DNA from: Saprospiraceae bacterium | GTDB lineage: Bacteria; Bacteroidota; Bacteroidia; Chitinophagales; Saprospiraceae | Direction of reading: 5' to 3' | Length of the DNA stretch: 45,914 nt | Assembly (NCBI GenBank): GCA_025056735.1 | Contig: JANWVR010000071.1 | Coordinates: 1 to 45,914, forward strand | In this document: positions 10,612 through 40,200 of the stretch, in pieces | Position numbering within the stretch: position 1 is the stretch's first letter | Layout: each line of letters opens with the position of its first letter | Notes under the pieces: generated by a model | What the model saw: the letters and a program-made list of their open reading frames with translations, nothing else | Told to the model about the DNA's origin: nothing | Databases searched by the model: none | Made by a program: the position numbers and the translations under genes

Positions 10612-10950
10612 TTAAGCCTCAACGGTTTCGTCTACCACTGCGGCGTCAGGTGCATTCTTCTTCACCGACTCAATGCCGTTGTCGCGCGAGTCTTCAGAAG
10701 CGTACATCTGGCTCTGGCCAATGACCTGGCCGTTGCTGGCTTTTAATACAAAGTAAGGTTTGCCGTTGCTGGCCACTCTGCGTTCGAAGCGCCCGTCCTC
10801 TTGCGAGTTCTTTTTTACCGACTCAATGCCGTTGAGGCACGACGCTTTGGAGGCATACCCCTCGCTGGTCAAAATGACCTGCCCGTTCGAGGCTAGCAAG
10901 TTGAATTGAAACTCGCCATTGCTGCGCTTGCTGATGACAAATTTGCTCAT
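10612..10950 (-). CDS. YegP-family (DUF1508) tandem-repeat protein
   Basis: The 112-residue protein is two copies of the ~50-residue DUF1508/YegP unit. Copy 1 has FQFNLLASNGQVILTSEGY ... GIESVKKN (about 12-48), and copy 2 has PYFVLKASNGQVIGQSQMY ... GIESVKKN (about 65-100). An acidic tail ends the protein. The family folds as a small alpha/beta domain; its function is not established, although family members are often small stress-associated proteins. The gene sits between nrdB (25 bases from the nrdB stop) and nrdA on the same strand, so it is probably co-transcribed with the ribonucleotide reductase genes, an arrangement that hints at a linked role but does not prove it. Confidence 0.85.
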   Translation of the reverse strand: MSKFVISKRSNGEFQFNLLASNGQVILTSEGYASKASCLNGIESVKKNSQEDGRFERRVASNGKPYFVLKASNGQVIGQSQMYASEDSRDNGIESVKKNAPDAAVVDETVEA

Positions 10951-10975: not shown

Positions 10976-11965
10976 TTAGAAATCTGCCTCTGTAGTGAAT
11001 GTTTGTTCTTCGCGCTTGGCCATTACGCCGGCCTTTTGGTAGTCGCCCACGCGCTTTTCAAAGAAGTTGGTTTTGCCCTGAATGGAAATCATATCCATCC
11101 ACGGGAAGGGATTGGCCGTGCCAAACACCTTGCTGACGCCCAGGGATACTAACAGGCGGTCAGCTACAAATTCGATGTACTGACTCATTAGGTCGGCATT
11201 CATGCCAATAAGCGACACGGGCAGGGCGTCCAGGATGAACTCTTTCTCAAATTCGACCGCCTCCGTAATAATGGCCTGCACCTCTTCGGGCGCCAGTTTG
11301 TTGCGCAGCATAGAATAGAGCAGGCAGGCAAAATCGCAGTGCATGCCCTCGTCGCGGCTGATGAGCTCGTTGGAAAACGTCAGCCCTGGCATCAGCCCGC
11401 GCTTCTTGAGCCAGAAGATAGCGCAGAATGAACCCGAGAAAAAGATACCCTCCACTGCCGCAAAGGCGATGAGCCGATGGGCAAACGACGGCGCATTCTC
11501 GATCCAGCGCAACGCCCATTGCCCTTTTTTGGCCACGCAAGGCAGGTTTTGCAGGGCATTAAATAAAAAATGCTTCTCCTGAGGCTCCTTGATATAAGTG
11601 TCAATAAGCAGCGAGTACACTTCCGAGTGGATGTTCTCAATGGCAATCTGGAAGCCGTAGAAACAGCGCGCTTCTGGGATTTGCACCTCGCGCATGAAGT
11701 TAAGCACTAAGTTCTCGTTCACGATGCCGTCCGAAGCGGCAAAGAAGGCCAGCACGTGCTTGATGAAGTGCCGGTCATTGTCGTTCAACTTGTGCTCCCA
11801 GTCCCACAGGTCTTGCTGCAGATCAATCTCCTCGGCCGTCCAGAAGGAGGCTTCCGCTTTTTTATACCATTCCCACACTTCAGGATACTGAATAGGCAGC
11901 AGGACAAACCGATTCGGATTGTCAGCCAGGATAGGCTCTACGTCGTATATATCTTCTCTTATCAT
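10976..11965 (-). CDS. nrdB: Class Ia ribonucleoside-diphosphate reductase, beta subunit
   Basis: The 329-residue radical subunit supplies the tyrosyl radical to NrdA. The di-iron/tyrosyl site is readable: Asp79 (FFAASDGI), Glu110 and His113 in ENIHSEVY, and the radical Tyr117 in the same motif. The blocks [18 protein letters not shown] and [11 protein letters not shown] are close to eukaryotic R2. The start at 11965 ([13 protein letters not shown]) is chosen because the upstream in-frame extension has no R2-like sequence. It is the first gene of the nrdB-yegP-nrdA cluster. The leader of about 180 bases contains an intrinsic terminator (12066-12100), and the promoter at 12150-12179 lies next to DnaA boxes. 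Confidence 0.96.
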
Positions 11966-12065
11966 AAAAGCATGTATGTTAGTGTGTGTAATGTAGTCAA
12001 AGCAAATATCCCAGCTCCTCGGGTGGAAGAACCTCAGCGGTAAGGACAACAAAGCGCGTGGTGGA

Positions 12066-12100
12066 TAAAAAAGCCCCCTCTTTTTCAGAAAACAAGGGGG
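12066..12100 (-). terminator. Intrinsic terminator inside the nrdB leader (candidate attenuator)
   Basis: On the minus strand the arms CCCCCT (complement of 12095-12100) and AGGGGG (complement of 12074-12079) form a GC stem. It continues through a small internal mismatch into TTTT/AAAA pairs and is followed by GCTTTTTT, a six-T run (12067-12072). Transcripts from the promoter at 12150-12179 must pass it to reach nrdB about 100 bases further on. No gene lies between promoter and terminator. A small TTGCC-TCC-GGCAA hairpin immediately precedes it and could be part of an alternative fold. Confidence 0.65.
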
Positions 12101-12149: not shown

Positions 12150-12179
12150 CAAAAGTAGGGCTTTCGGCGCCTCTGTCAA
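12150..12179 (-). promoter_or_regulatory. nrdB: Promoter of the nrdB-yegP-nrdA operon
   Basis: On the minus strand TTG (12177-12179, within TTGACAG) is followed after exactly 19 bases by TACTTTTG (12150-12157), an ideal Bacteroidota promoter. The start point should be near 12146, giving a ~180-base leader before the nrdB ATG. Two facing DnaA boxes end 7 bases upstream of the -33 element, a typical place for a regulator. Confidence 0.75.
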
Positions 12180-12185
12180 GTCAAT

Positions 12186-12285
12186 TTTTCCACATTATGT
12201 GGATAACTTTTTCAAAAATTTGAAAATCAATGATTTGTATTTTGTCGAAAAAATGTCCACAATGTGGATAACTTGATGTGGAAAA
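12186..12285. promoter_or_regulatory. Cluster of DnaA boxes in AT-rich DNA (oriC candidate or nrd control region)
   Basis: Four sequences fit the DnaA box TTWTNCACA: TTTTCCACA at 12186-12194 (+), TTATCCACA at 12198-12206 (-), TTATCCACA at 12263-12271 (-) and TTTTCCACA at 12277-12285 (-). A partial one (TGTCCACA) is at 12254-12261. Boxes pair as dyads: TCCACA-TTA-TGTGGA and TCCACA-A-TGTGGA. Between them is AT-rich DNA with an 8-bp inverted repeat (TTTTCAAA/TTTGAAAA, 12209-12226). A further 8/9 match lies at 12060-12068. The cluster separates leftward nrdB from rightward rfbG. Both a replication origin and DnaA control of nrd, known from Escherichia coli, fit. Confidence 0.7.
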
Positions 12286-13665: not shown

Positions 13666-15189
13666 TCAGGCCCATAAACGCATCTGGGTCGGCAGTTTGT
13701 ACGTCTGCACTACGCGGTCTGGTATGGGCAGCTGCTCCAACCAACGGGGCTCTACTTTGATGGCCCCGGCGCCATAGGATTTGCCGATTTTGGACAGGTT
13801 GGTGAGCATGTCGGGGTGATTGAGCACAAGAGCAAGGCGCTCTATGTACTCGGCGTTGCTCCAGTGGGGATAGAGGCATAGGAAGCCGGTCAGTGGGACA
13901 ACCTGGGCGTAGTTGCGAATAAAACGAGAATTTCGGCGTCCTAAATAGGCGAACAAGAGCGGCGGTGGTGTCCGGACTTCCATTTTGTACCAGGGTTTGC
14001 GCTGGGCGAGTAGCGGGCGAGTCGGCAGCCCTTTTTCTTCACCGAGAGCCAGATAACGCTGAAGCGCATCTGGGAAAGTTGTCTTGTCCTGGCCGTTTAG
14101 CGACAGCAGGAATGTTGGGCGTCCTGCAAGGTCGAGGGCATTCAGTGTCGTTGCGGTAACAGCGTCGCCACTGACGTCTCGGGTGCGGCCAATGGCTCGG
14201 ACGAAGTAGCTCTCCGGTAGGCCTAATGCCTCAATTTGACGGCTGTTTAGAAAGAAGAAATCGTTGGCGCCGGTAGCAATACCTCGAATGACTTTAGCAA
14301 AGTCGCCCAGGACATATCCTTCCTCTTGGCGCTCACATGGCTCGCGCGAGAAGCCAGTAGCCAGCCCTTCTTTAATGCTCCTGCGCATCATTTTTAAATC
14401 GTCGTACTCTTTGGCCTCCAACCCCCGGAGCACCCATTCCTGGAGGGCATTCGTCTGCGTCCGATGACACTTCGCCCACCAGAATTGTTCCTCAGGAGGC
14501 GCTTTGCGAATGAAAAAGACGATAGGGTTGGTGTCCACCGCTGGGAAGGGGGAGGCTGCTGGAGCAAAAGTAATTACAGCGTCTACAGCAAAATGGGTCG
14601 TGATCCACCCCCATATATCGCGAGCGTATTTTCCCTCACATACATCGGCAGGCAGAATAATGGCCAATCGGCCCCCGGCTTTGAGTAATGTCAATGCCCT
14701 TAACAGGAAATAGACGTGTAAGCCCGCTCGTCCGTCTATAGCACTCCCAATGATCTGAGCACACATGTGCCTGAGCGCTTCCTTTTTTTCGGCAGACAGG
14801 CGATGATGTCGAATGTAAGGAGGATTAGCGACGATAGCACTCAGTTTCTCTTGTGGCGGCTGAAGCGTAAAGTCGCCTATTGCGATGCCCGCCGTGTCTT
14901 CAGCCTGCAAATTACCGTCTTCTAAAGCCTGTTTTAGAATCTCTGGATCTATCTCCATGCCCCTACAACAAATAGGTGTTCCGCGCTCGCGCGCAAGCGA
15001 CTTCGCTGCGCGAAAGAAAGCGCCAGCGCCTACGGCGGGGTCGAACAACACATCTGTTGGCTGGGTCATCACGTACGCCGCCATTGCTTTTGCTACCCAT
15101 TCAGGTGTCCAAAATTGTCCTTTTTCTCTCAAACGTTCGCGCGCAGCCCAACGAGGCAAATTGCGAGAGGCGCCTTCAGGATTTGTCAT
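13666..15189 (-). CDS. Type II N6-adenine DNA methyltransferase (gamma-type, with target-recognition region)
   Basis: The 507-residue protein carries S-adenosylmethionine motif I (DPAVGAGAF, 50-58) followed by the catalytic motif NPPY (122-125, in ANPPYIRHHR). This order is typical of gamma-class adenine methylases of the Eco57I/TaqI style. The C-terminal half (about 280-507) looks like a TaqI-like target-recognition domain. Its start overlaps the stop of the upstream endonuclease gene by 14 bases, so the two are translationally coupled and form one RM system. It protects host DNA at the recognition site; the site cannot be deduced securely. The C-terminus converges with rfbG. Confidence 0.88.
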   Translation of the reverse strand: MTNPEGASRNLPRWAARERLREKGQFWTPEWVAKAMAAYVMTQPTDVLFDPAVGAGAFFRAAKSLARERGTPICCRGMEIDPEILKQALEDGNLQAEDTAGIAIGDFTLQPPQEKLSAIVANPPYIRHHRLSAEKKEALRHMCAQIIGSAIDGRAGLHVYFLLRALTLLKAGGRLAIILPADVCEGKYARDIWGWITTHFAVDAVITFAPAASPFPAVDTNPIVFFIRKAPPEEQFWWAKCHRTQTNALQEWVLRGLEAKEYDDLKMMRRSIKEGLATGFSREPCERQEEGYVLGDFAKVIRGIATGANDFFFLNSRQIEALGLPESYFVRAIGRTRDVSGDAVTATTLNALDLAGRPTFLLSLNGQDKTTFPDALQRYLALGEEKGLPTRPLLAQRKPWYKMEVRTPPPLLFAYLGRRNSRFIRNYAQVVPLTGFLCLYPHWSNAEYIERLALVLNHPDMLTNLSKIGKSYGAGAIKVEPRWLEQLPIPDRVVQTYKLPTQMRLWA

Positions 15190-16144
15190 GTCTCATCGTT
15201 TTTAGTACGTTCAAAGCGTCCGTCATAAGTTCCATCCGCCCGCCCTCAAAATGAACATAGGGCAAAATATGGCCATTCTTATCCTGAATGTACTTGGCCA
15301 CTAATTCCGGCTCTTGTATTGCCTCACCTACTAAGTAGGCATAGTGATGATAAATTTTGTAGATTGATTTTTGTGTAACGGCGCCACCGGGCGCCTGAAA
15401 CACCTGTTCTGTGGGAAGAATTAACCCCTCCTGGATCAAGCGCAGCGCCTCATTAAGGGCAATTCCGAACGCTAGATCATAGAAAACATGCCAGATATGG
15501 ATGGGAATGCCGTGAGATGCCTGCCACGTCAATAGCGGTTGAATGTCCTCTTCTTTCAGAATGATTGTGGGGAGAACAGCGTTCTTTTTCAAGCCGGGTT
15601 TGCCTCCCAACCGCCTTTGAGGCGTCAGCGGAGCGCCATAGTCGGGCATTTGCTTTCCCACCCAAAGGCTGTTTTCGCACTCGATAGCAAGAATAGCCTG
15701 CCCGAGTATGGACTGGATAATTGTCTCATTCTCCGCAAGGAACGGTAACTCTGCCCATCCTCCGATATCATTTAGAAGCGCATGTATTTCCTGACGCGCA
15801 GATGCCTCAAAGACAAGCAAATCAGGGCGCTTTTGCTGCCCTAATCCGGCCGCTTCGAGTCGTTCAAAATAAAGCTCCGCTTCTCGGATGTCATCATCGG
15901 GCGCTACTCCGCTTGGCCCGTAAGGAATGGCGAAATACTCGCCCGTTTGATGAATTGCCTGAACCATTCGATTTTCGCTCCAAACGCCTTGCGACCACCG
16001 CATCAGAAAGTCGCTACCGCGCAAACGCCTGGGGTTGAGCCAGAAATCCAACCACTCAGCAGAGGCAAGGCTTTGGAGCGGGGGCAACATCTCCTCCGAA
16101 CCCACGCTCAAAATGCGTTCAAATAGGCGGACTTCCTTTTGCAT
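15176..16144 (-). CDS. Type II restriction endonuclease partner of the adjacent methylase (possibly AccI-like)
   Basis: This 322-residue protein lies directly upstream of, and overlaps, the adenine methylase gene. A candidate PD-(D/E)xK-type core is visible: Asp in KRPDLLVF, then strand AILAIECENS with its acidic pair. The overall layout reminds me of the AccI endonuclease family, but this is recognition from memory and not certain. The start at 16144 (MQKEVRLFERIL) is preferred over 16186 because the promoter element at 16184-16191 overlaps the latter. The codon at 16186 would add 14 residues without a clear role. Its place 160 bases from a tRNA gene is common for mobile RM modules. Confidence 0.7.
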   Translation of the reverse strand: MQKEVRLFERILSVGSEEMLPPLQSLASAEWLDFWLNPRRLRGSDFLMRWSQGVWSENRMVQAIHQTGEYFAIPYGPSGVAPDDDIREAELYFERLEAAGLGQQKRPDLLVFEASARQEIHALLNDIGGWAELPFLAENETIIQSILGQAILAIECENSLWVGKQMPDYGAPLTPQRRLGGKPGLKKNAVLPTIILKEEDIQPLLTWQASHGIPIHIWHVFYDLAFGIALNEALRLIQEGLILPTEQVFQAPGGAVTQKSIYKIYHHYAYLVGEAIQEPELVAKYIQDKNGHILPYVHFEGGRMELMTDALNVLKTMRHDKS

Positions 16145-16183
16145 TTTTAACTTTGATTGACTCTTCCAAGGCAAATGTCCTCC

Positions 16184-16216
16184 CAAAAATAAGCTTTAAG
16201 TGCGCGTAGGACGCAA
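16184..16216 (-). promoter_or_regulatory. Promoter of the endonuclease-methylase pair
   Basis: On the minus strand TTG (16214-16216) is followed after 22 bases by TATTTTTG (16184-16191). It places the transcript start near 16180 and so selects ATG 16144 as the endonuclease start. There is no separate controller (C) protein gene. Confidence 0.55.
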
Positions 16217-28206: not shown

Positions 28207-29091
28207 TTACCATTCGGAACTGTTCGTGATGAGCAGCTCATATTTCTTCAAGTGGTGGGTGGTTTTCATGGGAATGCTTCGATAAGGAAGACAGAACCTT
28301 TCGGCCAACTGGCGCACTTCTTTGGTGTCGTCATACGTGAGCATAAAATGGCCTTTAATGCAGCTGGCCAGCATAAAAAGGCGCTCATGGTCTAGTTCGG
28401 AATGGGTGTACAGGCGTCTGCCTGCGACCGTATAGGGAGGGTCTATGAAGAACACCGCTGAAGGATTGTCCAGCTGAGACTCGATAACAGGAAAGGCATC
28501 TCCTCGAATAAAAGTGATTTTGTGCCGGATCTGGTCTATTGCTCGAATGCGTTTGCAAAGCGTCAAAGGGTACCAGCGCGAGCCTAAGCCCTTTCCATTC
28601 TCGCCGCTTTTCATTTGCCCGGAACCTTTCGCTAAAATACCTCCATGAAGTACACGGTTTTTCAAGATGGTTTTGAAGGCCATTGCACGAAGGTTTGCAG
28701 GCTCTGCAGATAGCTCGCGCTGAACATTTTCGGGCGTAAAATCAAAATGCAACACTTTTTCTGCCAACCATTCGCCCTCTCCTTGAAAAATAACTTCCCA
28801 CACGGAGGCCACTTCGTCATCCAATTCCACCATAGTGATCCGGGAGGCCAGGTCTTCAAAAGCTACTGTCAGGCTCACAATGCCTCCCCCTGCAAAAGGC
28901 TCAATAAAATGCGTGTCCTTGGCCGCAAATGGCTGCATCCATTTGCGCACTAACGGTATTAACCAGGTCTTGCCTCCCGGATATCGAAACGGGCTGCGCT
29001 GAGGCACAGAGGCAACATTGGTTACCTCCTCACCCTCTACACGCTGAGGCAATAATGCTTTGGGCTTTTCTAAAAACAGTTCCAATTGCAT
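28207..29091 (-). CDS. Dam-class (D12) N6-adenine DNA methyltransferase
   Basis: The 294-residue alpha-class adenine methylase has RYPGGK (36-41), the S-adenosylmethionine motif FIEPFAGGG (62-70) and catalytic DPPY (217-220). It starts 8 bases after the stop of the NotI-family endonuclease gene on the same strand, so the two form an RM operon. The endonuclease is interrupted by a stop codon while the methylase looks intact. The recognition sequence cannot be read, and GATC specificity should not be assumed. Confidence 0.92.
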   Translation of the reverse strand: MQLELFLEKPKALLPQRVEGEEVTNVASVPQRSPFRYPGGKTWLIPLVRKWMQPFAAKDTHFIEPFAGGGIVSLTVAFEDLASRITMVELDDEVASVWEVIFQGEGEWLAEKVLHFDFTPENVQRELSAEPANLRAMAFKTILKNRVLHGGILAKGSGQMKSGENGKGLGSRWYPLTLCKRIRAIDQIRHKITFIRGDAFPVIESQLDNPSAVFFIDPPYTVAGRRLYTHSELDHERLFMLASCIKGHFMLTYDDTKEVRQLAERFCLPYRSIPMKTTHHLKKYELLITNSSEW

Positions 29092-37216: not shown

Positions 37217-40200
37217 TTAACGGGCGATGATCAGTTTGCGCATACCCACACCCTCCATTGAGCGCAGGCGGAGCCAATAGACGCCTTCAGGCAGATGGGT
37301 GGCATCTATGCGCCAGACGTTTTGATGGCTCAAGCGCTGCGTCTGCACGAGGCGGCCCGTGGCATCGAGCAGGGCAATTTCGGCATCAGCCGGAGCGGGC
37401 TGGAGTAGTACGAGATCAGCAATGCCACCCGTCGGGTTGGGCCGCAGCACAAGGCCCTGCATCCAGTCGGGTTCGCGCGTGCGGACGACGTTGTCCACCG
37501 AAATGTTGCGCACTGCGAGGACGCAGCCGTTGGCGTCGCGAATTTCGACGTTGTAGCGCCCGGCCGGGATGTTTTTCAGGTCCTCGCTGGTGCCAACCAC
37601 ATTGCCCTGAGCGTCCGTCCAGACGAACTGGTATGGCGGTGTGCCGCCGGCGGGCGCGATGTCAATGGCGCCAACGCTCTGGCTATTGACGTCGTTCGTA
37701 ACCACTGGGGTGGGCACGGCAATGGGCGGTGTTATGGTTACGCGGAAAGAACAGCGGCCCACGTTGCCGGCGGCGTCGGTATAGGCGTACGTTTGCTCGG
37801 TAACGCCTACAGGGAATTCCGAGCCGCTGGGCAAGCCCTCTTCTAATTTCCATTCGCCGCCAGCCGACAGGCAGTTGTCCTGGGCGATGGGGGCCGAGTA
37901 GCTGACGGTGTTGTCGTACCAGCAGGCCACAACGTTTGCCGGGCAGGTAAGCGTGGGCGGCAGGTTGTCCACCACACTGACGAGCAGCTCTAAGATGGCG
38001 ACGTTGCCCTTAGCATCGTCGGCTGTGATGGTTACCATTTGCTGGCCCTGGCGCGAGCAATCAAACACAGCTGGCTCGACAGTTACTGATTTTACGGAGC
38101 AATTGTCGGTAATGCTGGCGCCTAAAGCGCTGAGAGAGACGGCTACGGCGCCGCTGGCGCCCAGTTCAAGTACGGTGTTTTGCACGGCAATAGTTGGCGC
38201 TTCGCCGTCAGTAGCTTCCAGCGTGTAGGCGGCTTCGACGGTACAGCCGTTAGCGTCGGTCAGCAACAGCGTATAGTTGCCGGGCAGGGCCTGTTCCAGG
38301 TTACTGCCGGTATGGCCGGTATTCCAGGCGTAGGTGTAGCCTCCTGTACCACCGGTAGTAGTCGTCCGAATAGCGCCAGCAGGTTCGTTGGGACAAAGTG
38401 GGTGAGTCAGGCTGGCTGTCAGTTCCAGCGGCGCGGGTTCGGTGATGGTGCTCGTCACCTCTAAGCTACAGCCATTGGCGTCGGTGATAGCGGCAGTGTA
38501 CGTGCCCGGAGCGAGGTTCTGGATGGAGGGCGTAGTGGCACCGGTGCTCCACAGGTAAGTGTAGGGCGCTGTACCGCCAGAGAGGCTGACTGAGATAGCG
38601 CCGTTGTGCTGACCGAAACAGCGCACGTGCGTGGCAGTAGGCTGAGCCGTTAGGGTGCAGCCGAAAGCATTTACCGTAACTGTTTGCACAGCAATACAGC
38701 CGTTTTCATCCGTTACCGTTACGGTGTAAATGCCAGGCGCCAAGCCACTCAAGGTCTGGGTGGTTTTGCCGTTGCTCCAGGTATAGGTATAGCTACCCGT
38801 ACCGCCGGTGGGATTGGCCATGGCCGTGCCGTTGTTGGCGTCTACAAACGTTTCATCGGTAGCAGAAGCATTGGCGAGCAGGCGCTCTGGCTGAGTGATG
38901 GTTATCTGCAGCACGTCGGCGCAGTTAGCGTTGTCCAGCACCTGCACAGTGTAAACACCGGGGGCGAGTTGGGCCACTTCGGCGGTCTTGGCGCCGTTGC
39001 TCCAGGCGTAGCTGACGGGAGCGTTGGCGCCGGTTACGGTAACTTTAGCGGTACCGTTGTTCGCGCCGAAGCAGGTAACGTCGGTGTAGGTGGCAGTAGC
39101 GTCAATGGTGCAGTCGAAGGCATTGACCACGACCGACTGGGCGGCGGTACAGCCATTTTCGTCGGTTATAACAACGGTGTAAATGCCTGGGGCGAGGTCA
39201 GTGATTGTCTGAGTGCTCTGTCCGTTGCTCCACAGGTAAGTGTAAGCGCCTGTGCCACCGACGGGATTAGCCGTAGCTGTGCCATCGTGGACTCCGTTAG
39301 CCGTTTGCGGCGTGGCAAAAGCGTTGGGCTGCAGAGCAGTGGGTTGTTCAATGGTGGTGATAGCGATAGCAGTGCAGCCCTCGGTGTCCGTGATGGTTAC
39401 AGTATAGGTGCCGGCAGAGAGATTTGTCGCCATAGCCGTCTCGTCGCCATTGGTCCACAGGAAGGCAAATTCGCCACTGCCTCCAGCAGCGCTGGCCACA
39501 GCGATGCCGTCGGCGCCGCCGAAGCAGGATACGTTCGTCTGTGGCTCGGCAGCAGCGCTTACGGGTTCGCGCTGAATGACCTGGGTACTGGCCTCAGCAG
39601 CGCAGCCCGTAGCGTCATTGCTCACCCGGAGTGTATAGACGCCTGCCGCATCCACGACCGGTTGCGGCGTGGTTTCGCCCGAGACGATGTTGCCGTCTTG
39701 CGTCGTCCACACGTAGCGAATGTGTTCGCCCTGAGCAGAGGCCGTGCCGTCAAGGATGACCTGCGAAGAATTGCAGTTCAGGGTAGTGGGCGCCACGGCG
39801 CTTGCCGCGGGCGGTAATGTGTCGTAGCGAACTAAGGCGACGGCTGAGGAGACGCACCCATTAAGGGTGTCCGTGATGAAGACGGTGTATTCGCCGCCTA
39901 AGGCCACCACCGGATCGGGCAGGTCGCTTTCAAAGCCTTCTGGTCCCGTCCAGGCGTAGATAGCATGGGCCGACTGTGTTTCTGCATTCAGCGCCACGGT
40001 GTCTACGGCGCAGGTGAGCACACCTCCAGTAGCCTCTGCTCCTGGAGGCACAGTGTCTATCTTGACGATGGTCGTGTCGAACTTCAAACAACCAGTAACG
40101 GAGTCCAGCACGGTCAGGGTATAAGCGCCAACGACGGCAACCGTAGGACTCTGTTCGGTAGAGGCAAAGCCATTGGGCCCCTTCCATTCAAACGAAGGTT

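What the first reader, a model, noticed from the sequence alone, without database searches (positions are those of the whole stretch)
12186..12285. DnaA-box cluster with AT-rich core between nrdB and rfbG: replication origin or nrd switch
Four DnaA-type boxes, two of them exact TTATCCACA, lie within 100 bases, with a fifth partial box between them and a sixth 8/9 match at 12060-12068. They are arranged as two dyads around AT-rich DNA that has its own 8-bp inverted repeat, between divergent genes. Two readings fit: a chromosomal origin away from dnaA, or DnaA control of ribonucleotide reductase. The Escherichia coli nrdAB promoter is regulated through DnaA boxes. One dyad ends 7 bases upstream of the nrd -33 element, an ideal activator or repressor position.
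Basis: partly seen in the sequence, partly recalled or inferred. Interest (0 to 1): 0.75.

Follow-up and report, generated by a model that had tools for sequence, protein, structure and literature searches.

The report
DnaA-type switch before reductase genes
Next to the genes that make DNA building blocks, this environmental bacterium and many of its relatives keep a fixed cluster of sites of the kind bound by the protein that starts chromosome copying, so building-block supply is probably tied to the start of replication; it is probably not the replication origin.

Summary
The boxes are real: four DnaA-type 9-mers in 100 bp; none of 200 window shuffles had more than two. The arrangement is conserved. 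Of 91 non-redundant nrdB upstream regions, 72 carry the proximal dyad at 16 or more of 18 positions, against 0 of 1820 shuffles; the distal dyad lies 64-65 bp further up in 54 of 78, and a -7 promoter element 28-30 nt downstream in 60 of 78. An IHF-consensus site lies between the dyads, at one offset in 35 of 36 loci with a perfect forward match. The module follows nrdB, not its neighbour: rfbG is there in 3 of 72 loci, and two relatives have a second copy with identical geometry before nrdA. That points to a promoter switch. An origin is unlikely, though skew evidence is weak. NrdR was found in 0 of 40 relatives, Hda above cut-off in 0 of 30. Best reading: DnaA-controlled ribonucleotide reductase, with IHF/HU bending two DnaA groups together. 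New variant of a known kind.

The parts
12277..12285 (-). outer distal DnaA-type box TTTTCCACA
   Evidence: a box 13-15 or 25 nt before the distal dyad in many, not all, relatives listed
12263..12271 (-). distal dyad, arm 1: exact DnaA box TTATCCACA
   Evidence: distal dyad 64-65 bp from the proximal one in 54 of 78 loci
12253..12261 (+). distal dyad, arm 2: degenerate box ATGTCCACA (7 of 9), 1-nt spacer from arm 1
   Evidence: read; full or one-mismatch box at this place in several relatives
12225..12237 (+). AT-rich centre with IHF-consensus site AATCAATGATTTG (9 of 9 to WATCARnnnnTTR)
   Evidence: In nrdB sense this is a reverse-strand match at offset 31, shared by 7 loci; the forward match at offset 19 is commoner (35 loci). 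Either strand: 42 of 78 at 9/9, null 1.4%. Consensus as quoted in PMC8407004
12186..12206 (.). proximal dyad TTTTCCACA-TTA-TGTGGATAA (two inverted DnaA-type boxes, 3-nt spacer)
   Evidence: the only match in the genome to the pattern; 16 or more of 18 positions in 72 of 91 relatives
12177..12179 (-). -33 element TTG of the nrdB promoter
   Evidence: read; the Bacteroidota promoter form is recalled, not from a call
12150..12157 (-). -7 element TACTTTTG of the nrdB promoter
   Evidence: read; TAnnTTN[GC] starts 28-30 nt after the dyad in 60 of 78 loci, 2.0% of shuffles
10976..11965 (-). nrdB, ribonucleotide reductase small subunit
   Evidence: PF00268, 9.4e-117
10612..10950 (-). small DUF1508 protein between nrdB and nrdA
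   Evidence: PF07411
7988..10411 (-). nrdA, ribonucleotide reductase large subunit with ATP-cone
   Evidence: PF02867, PF00317, PF03477
12425..13513 (+). divergent neighbour rfbG, CDP-glucose 4,6-dehydratase; not part of the module
   Evidence: TIGR02622 above cut-off; found upstream of nrdB in 3 of 72 loci

Best explanation
The element is the control region of the nrdB-nrdA promoter. DnaA binds two inverted box pairs about 65 bp apart; an IHF/HU-type protein bends the AT-rich DNA between them so that the two DnaA groups touch. The proximal pair sits just upstream of the -33 element, where I expect basal DnaA to help RNA polymerase and higher-order (ATP-)DnaA to block it, so that dNTP supply follows initiation capacity. 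Shown here: boxes, fixed geometry, promoter anchoring, second copy before nrdA, no NrdR found. Inferred: that DnaA is the binder, that IHF/HU bends the centre, and the sign of regulation.
For: Dyad at 16 or more of 18 in 72 of 91 nrdB upstreams, 0 of 1820 shuffles; spacing 64-65 bp in 54 of 78; -7 element at 28-30 nt in 60 of 78 against 2.0% of shuffles. The IHF consensus, taken from outside the data, is matched 9/9 in 35 of 78 against 0.4% of shuffles; 35 of 36 such loci have it at one offset. Of 27 same-genus loci fetched around the dyad 24 adjoin nrd genes; in other genera of the family 17 of 20. G008 and G023 have a second module before nrdA with the same 65 / 19 / 28 geometry. rfbG adjoins in 3 of 72. 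NrdR 0 of 40. Reader: a box profile like that at nrdB (A3, T4, C5, C6, 5' G), unlike background, recurs in an array upstream of dnaB where boxes are not close dyads, as expected of a box-by-box binder such as DnaA; domain IV of the genome's DnaA aligns to 1J1V with GGRDH kept. HU/IHF-family genes are present. E. coli precedent: PMC8203912 (passages).
Against: No binding or expression data. In more distant relatives, and in part of the genus, boxes are often TTATCAACA, TTATTAACA or TTACYAACA, outside the TT[A/T]TNCACA consensus quoted in PMC8682772. The strong two-fold symmetry would also suit a dimeric regulator. 19 of 91 score below 16, including Saprospira grandis (12 of 18) and Aureispira loci (one search list). 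0 of 10 dyads fetched from other families of the order adjoin nrd genes by a search with the window's NrdA and NrdB, so the module looks family-limited. The 3' flank of boxes differs between nrd and dnaB. The dyad consensus was drawn from the same sequences that it was counted in.
Confidence: 0.74

Rival explanations
1. A different, dimeric transcription factor with a palindrome such as GTTAnYAACAnnnTGTTRnTAAC reads the sites; the DnaA look is partly coincidence in this genus.
For: Strong dyad symmetry; C6 replaced by A in many relatives; within the family the fetched sites are mostly at nrd genes.
Against: Spacer is 1 nt in the distal and 3 nt in the proximal dyad; a like box profile forms a non-dyad array before dnaB. 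Per genome, use of the A6 variant at nrd and dnaB tends to go together, but only weakly (rho 0.50, p 0.067, n 14 related genomes).
Confidence: 0.16
2. A chromosomal replication origin away from dnaA.
For: Box cluster, AT-rich core, IHF-like site. In 1.18 Mb sampled from relative G009 only the nrdB and dnaB clusters reach four boxes in 250 bp, and none of three or more lies in the 60 kb read around dnaA. On G009 C3 the raw skew turns from negative to positive between the samples at 180 and 240 kb, about 80-140 kb from nrdB at 319 kb. In Saprospira grandis, which lacks the dyad, a short raw sign change lies between samples at 0.9 and 1.1 Mb, around its nrdB at 0.95 Mb.
Against: Geometry is fixed to the nrdB promoter and the module is duplicated before nrdA. 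In G009 the samples at 240-420 kb around nrdB are all positive; with coding-strand bias removed the change moves to 60-120 kb, some 200 kb away. In S. grandis the longest-lasting change is at 2.1-2.3 Mb. Another box array lies before dnaB, though without a clear skew switch in G007.
Confidence: 0.06
3. A datA- or DARS-like DnaA titration or nucleotide-state site that happens to lie before nrdB.
For: DnaA boxes plus IHF site, as described for datA and DARS2 in PMC8682772 (passages).
Against: Such a site needs no fixed distance to a promoter, nor a copy before nrdA. A double role is not excluded.
Confidence: 0.04

Closest known systems
E. coli nrdAB promoter controlled by DnaA
   Same: DnaA boxes upstream of the class I reductase promoter; PMC8203912 reports activation by DnaA-ADP or low DnaA-ATP and repression by high DnaA-ATP (passages).
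   Different: Here two rigidly spaced inverted pairs with an IHF-consensus site between them, a Bacteroidota-type promoter, nrdB first in the operon, NrdR found in 0 of 40 relatives, Hda above cut-off in 0 of 30. PMC8203912 describes three boxes for E. coli; I did not compare exact positions.
Proposed DnaA control of ribonucleotide reductase in Caulobacter crescentus and Bacillus subtilis
   Same: DnaA named as regulator of reductase genes (PMC8203912, passages).
   Different: Other phyla; I did not compare their promoter layouts.
datA and DARS2 of E. coli
   Same: DnaA boxes with IHF sites (PMC8682772, passages).
   Different: Not promoter-anchored control regions of nrd genes.
NrdR regulon
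   Same: Sites upstream of ribonucleotide reductase genes.
   Different: NrdR itself was found in 0 of 40 relatives; the box sequence differs from the NrdR box as I recall it.

Membership tests
DnaA-regulated nrd promoter | DnaA boxes upstream of a ribonucleotide reductase promoter | tested here: met
   conserved in relatives
DnaA-regulated nrd promoter | DnaA protein with a box-binding domain in the genome | tested here: met
   TIGR00362 over cut-off in G000, domain IV aligned to 1J1V
DnaA-regulated nrd promoter | DnaA binds the boxes and changes nrd transcription | not testable with these tools
   needs footprinting and reporter assays
DnaA-regulated nrd promoter | boxes match TT[A/T]TNCACA across relatives | tested here: inconclusive
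   met in the window; A at position 6 in 34% of the genus nrd boxes counted and in many distant relatives
chromosomal oriC | lies at a GC-skew / gene-orientation switch | tested here: inconclusive
   no switch at nrdB in G009, nearest raw change 80-140 kb away, 20-kb samples every 60 kb, weak skew; own genome not testable (152 contigs)
chromosomal oriC | DnaA-box cluster with AT-rich DNA | tested here: met
chromosomal oriC | position independent of one promoter, not duplicated before a second gene | tested here: not met
   promoter distance fixed; second copy before nrdA in G008 and G023
datA / DARS | stimulates DnaA-ATP hydrolysis or nucleotide exchange | not testable with these tools
   biochemistry needed
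NrdR regulon | NrdR present | tested here: not met
   TIGR00244: 0 of 40 relatives, 9 of 14 control genomes positive

The most novel reading that the evidence does not exclude
In a bacterial family in which neither NrdR nor Hda was detected, a DnaA-IHF/HU looped complex, built like a small orisome, is the main transcriptional link between initiation capacity and dNTP supply, and DnaA there reads a relaxed box (TTAnYMACA) that has drifted together at nrd and at the dnaB-side array.
Probability: 0.4. Interest if true: 0.65.

Novelty: new variant of a known kind. Interest (0 to 1): 0.5.

Why it matters
A 2025 review (PMC11853086, passages) asks how dNTP synthesis is coordinated with initiation in species without Hda. 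In the relatives searched here Hda exceeds its cut-off in 0 of 30 and NrdR is found in 0 of 40, yet most of the nrd promoters examined keep a rigid DnaA-type module. That gives a compact region on which to test the question outside the usual model bacteria. PMC8407004 (passages) also raises IHF as a possible regulator of cell-cycle genes such as nrdAB; here an IHF-consensus site lies at a preferred place in the module.

Tried and rejected
Origin reading: looked for a skew switch and box clusters in G009, G007 and Saprospira grandis. The origin was not located. The sharpest change in G009 lies by dnaA, with genes diverging as at an origin but the skew turning from plus to minus, the reverse of the usual sign; no box cluster was found in the 60 kb read there. 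The dnaB array has boxes but no clear switch in G007.

NrdR reading: none in 40 genomes. Riboswitch reading: Rfam at gathering thresholds gave only a tRNA in the window. The sigma-70/terminator scan does not cover this promoter type. Leader hairpin as a proven attenuator: folding is no better than shuffles (z -0.55), so only noted.

Mended steps: the first upstream scan mixed strands and was redone. A first rfbG search used a wrong frame and was redone. Of 30 dnaB loci fetched, 25 were read and G003's was dropped because it was not anchored on the gene start; four more dnaB loci were read. Of the nrdB loci, L028 and L029 (gene start missing), L030 and L031 (remote proteins) were left out of the counts.

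Full report
What is there. The window is contig C65 of a 152-contig genome; its nearest named relatives are Saprospiraceae metagenome assemblies. Four DnaA-type boxes lie at 12186-12285 between nrdB (-) and rfbG (+). None of 200 shuffles of the window put more than two such boxes in 100 bp. On the nrdB strand the order is: box; box plus a worn inverted partner (distal dyad, 1-nt spacer); AT-rich centre; inverted pair (proximal dyad, 3-nt spacer); 6 bp; TTG-19-TACTTTTG promoter; a leader of about 180 nt; nrdB. nrdB is followed by a DUF1508 gene and by nrdA with an ATP-cone.

Conservation. From two searches I took 106 upstream sequences, 91 non-redundant. The proximal dyad reaches 16 or more of 18 positions in 72 of 91 and 15 or more in 78; 0 of 1820 shuffles reached 16. 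Among the 78, the distal dyad starts 64 or 65 bp further up in 54, and a TAnnTTN[GC] element starts 28-30 nt downstream in 60, against 2.0% of shuffles. The IHF consensus WATCARnnnnTTR (quoted in PMC8407004) is matched 9/9 in 35 of 78, against 0.4% of shuffles. With a slightly longer stretch 36 loci match, 35 of them starting exactly 19 bp before the dyad. Seven loci have a reverse-strand match at offset 31; either strand gives 42 of 78, null 1.4%. The window is of the reverse kind: 12225-12237 on the + strand. The dyad consensus came from these sequences, but the promoter distance and IHF offset were not imposed, and the distal dyad was sought over an 80-bp range.

It travels with nrd genes. 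The dyad pattern occurs in 28 of 42 genus genomes, at 31 places. Of the 27 loci fetched, 24 adjoin nrdB and/or nrdA. Of the other three, L201 is cut by a contig end and has the same promoter spacing facing that end, and L191 and L198 lie at one shared non-nrd place. Over the order, 58 of 298 genomes match. Of 30 loci fetched, 17 of 20 from other genera of the family adjoin nrdB, and 0 of 10 from other families do, by tblastn with the window's NrdA and NrdB. G008 and G023 carry a second module between nrdB and nrdA with the same geometry: 65 bp between main boxes, IHF site at 19, -7 element at 28. rfbG is found upstream in 3 of 72 loci.

Origin or not. In G009 (7 contigs) the 20-kb samples at 240-420 kb of C3, around nrdB at 319 kb, are all positive. 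The raw sign turns from minus to plus between 180 and 240 kb; with coding-strand bias removed it turns between 60 and 120 kb, and single samples still scatter. A sharper change lies at 1.02-1.05 Mb of C1 by dnaA; genes diverge there as at an origin, but the skew turns from plus to minus, against the usual sign. In S. grandis, without the dyad, the longest-lasting change is at 2.1-2.3 Mb; a short raw change also falls around its nrdB. So skew alone decides little; the promoter-fixed geometry and the copy before nrdA are the stronger arguments against an origin.

Who reads the boxes. An array of three to six boxes lies upstream of dnaB in 18 of 18 genus loci that could be read (16, 2). In the eight loci of other families there are none to two; S. 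grandis has none and G041 three in one orientation. The box profile at positions 3-6 and the 5' base resembles that at nrdB and differs from background matches of the same expression in G009; the 3' flank differs between the two. Boxes before dnaB are commonly spaced about 20, 27 and 22 bp and are not close dyads, which favours a protein that binds single boxes. DnaA fits; its domain IV aligns to 1J1V, which I recall as the E. coli domain bound to DNA. Against this, A at position 6 in many relatives departs from the quoted DnaA consensus, so a dimeric factor keeps a probability of 0.16. Single dyads before dnaN (L326) and smc (L336) are further hints of a replication regulon but are single cases.

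Regulatory context. NrdR was found in 0 of 40 relatives, with 9 of 14 control genomes positive. Hda exceeded its cut-off in 0 of 30 relatives and in 1 of 14 controls; the lower-scoring hits include DnaA itself. HU/IHF-family genes are present in 5 of 5 genomes tested; that one of them acts here is inference.

Literature. E. coli nrdAB control by DnaA is established (PMC8203912 and PMC8682772, passages), so the principle is known. Searches for DnaA box with Saprospir, for DnaA, ribonucleotide reductase, Flavobacterium and DnaA boxes, and for DnaA, ribonucleotide reductase, Bacteroid, transcription factor and nrdB found no paper holding all terms in the held open-licence library; wider searches listed none whose title or abstract start names such a module. 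Subscription papers are not covered.

Verdict. A conserved, promoter-anchored DnaA-type module on nrd genes of Saprospiraceae: a new variant of a known kind of control, with the binder still to be shown.

Noticed in passing
L262 (G000:C118, upstream of dnaB at 37945-39267 -); L254, L255 and other genus loci: Array of three to six DnaA-type boxes (commonly -,-,+,+ about 20/27/22 bp apart, in some a further box near AT-rich DNA) upstream of dnaB in 18 of 18 readable genus loci: a candidate origin or dnaB control region; no clear skew switch there in G007.
   Followed up: partly
G009:C1 1.02-1.05 Mb (L165, L156): Sharp skew and gene-orientation change next to dnaA, skew sign opposite to the usual origin, and no box cluster within the 60 kb read.
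   Followed up: partly
L326 near 1501; L336 near 1501: The same dyad about 70 bp before dnaN and about 55 bp before smc in two other family members.
   Followed up: partly
window 12067-12100, - strand: Terminator-like hairpin with U-run in the nrdB leader, with partly changed letters in three near relatives; folding no better than shuffles. Possible attenuator.
   Followed up: partly
window 10612-10950, - strand: Small DUF1508 protein between nrdB and nrdA.
   Followed up: no
window 13666-16186, - strand: N6 DNA methylase and AccI-like restriction endonuclease side by side, probably a restriction-modification pair.
   Followed up: no
window 28207-29091, - strand: D12-class N6-adenine DNA methyltransferase.
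   Followed up: no
DnaA of G000, G002, G011 (L121, L122, L123): These three have PRH where the nine other DnaA proteins read have ARQ (eight) or ARK (S. grandis) in domain IV, and among the boxes counted they use only C6 at nrdB and dnaB: one clade, so only a hint of co-drift.
   Followed up: partly
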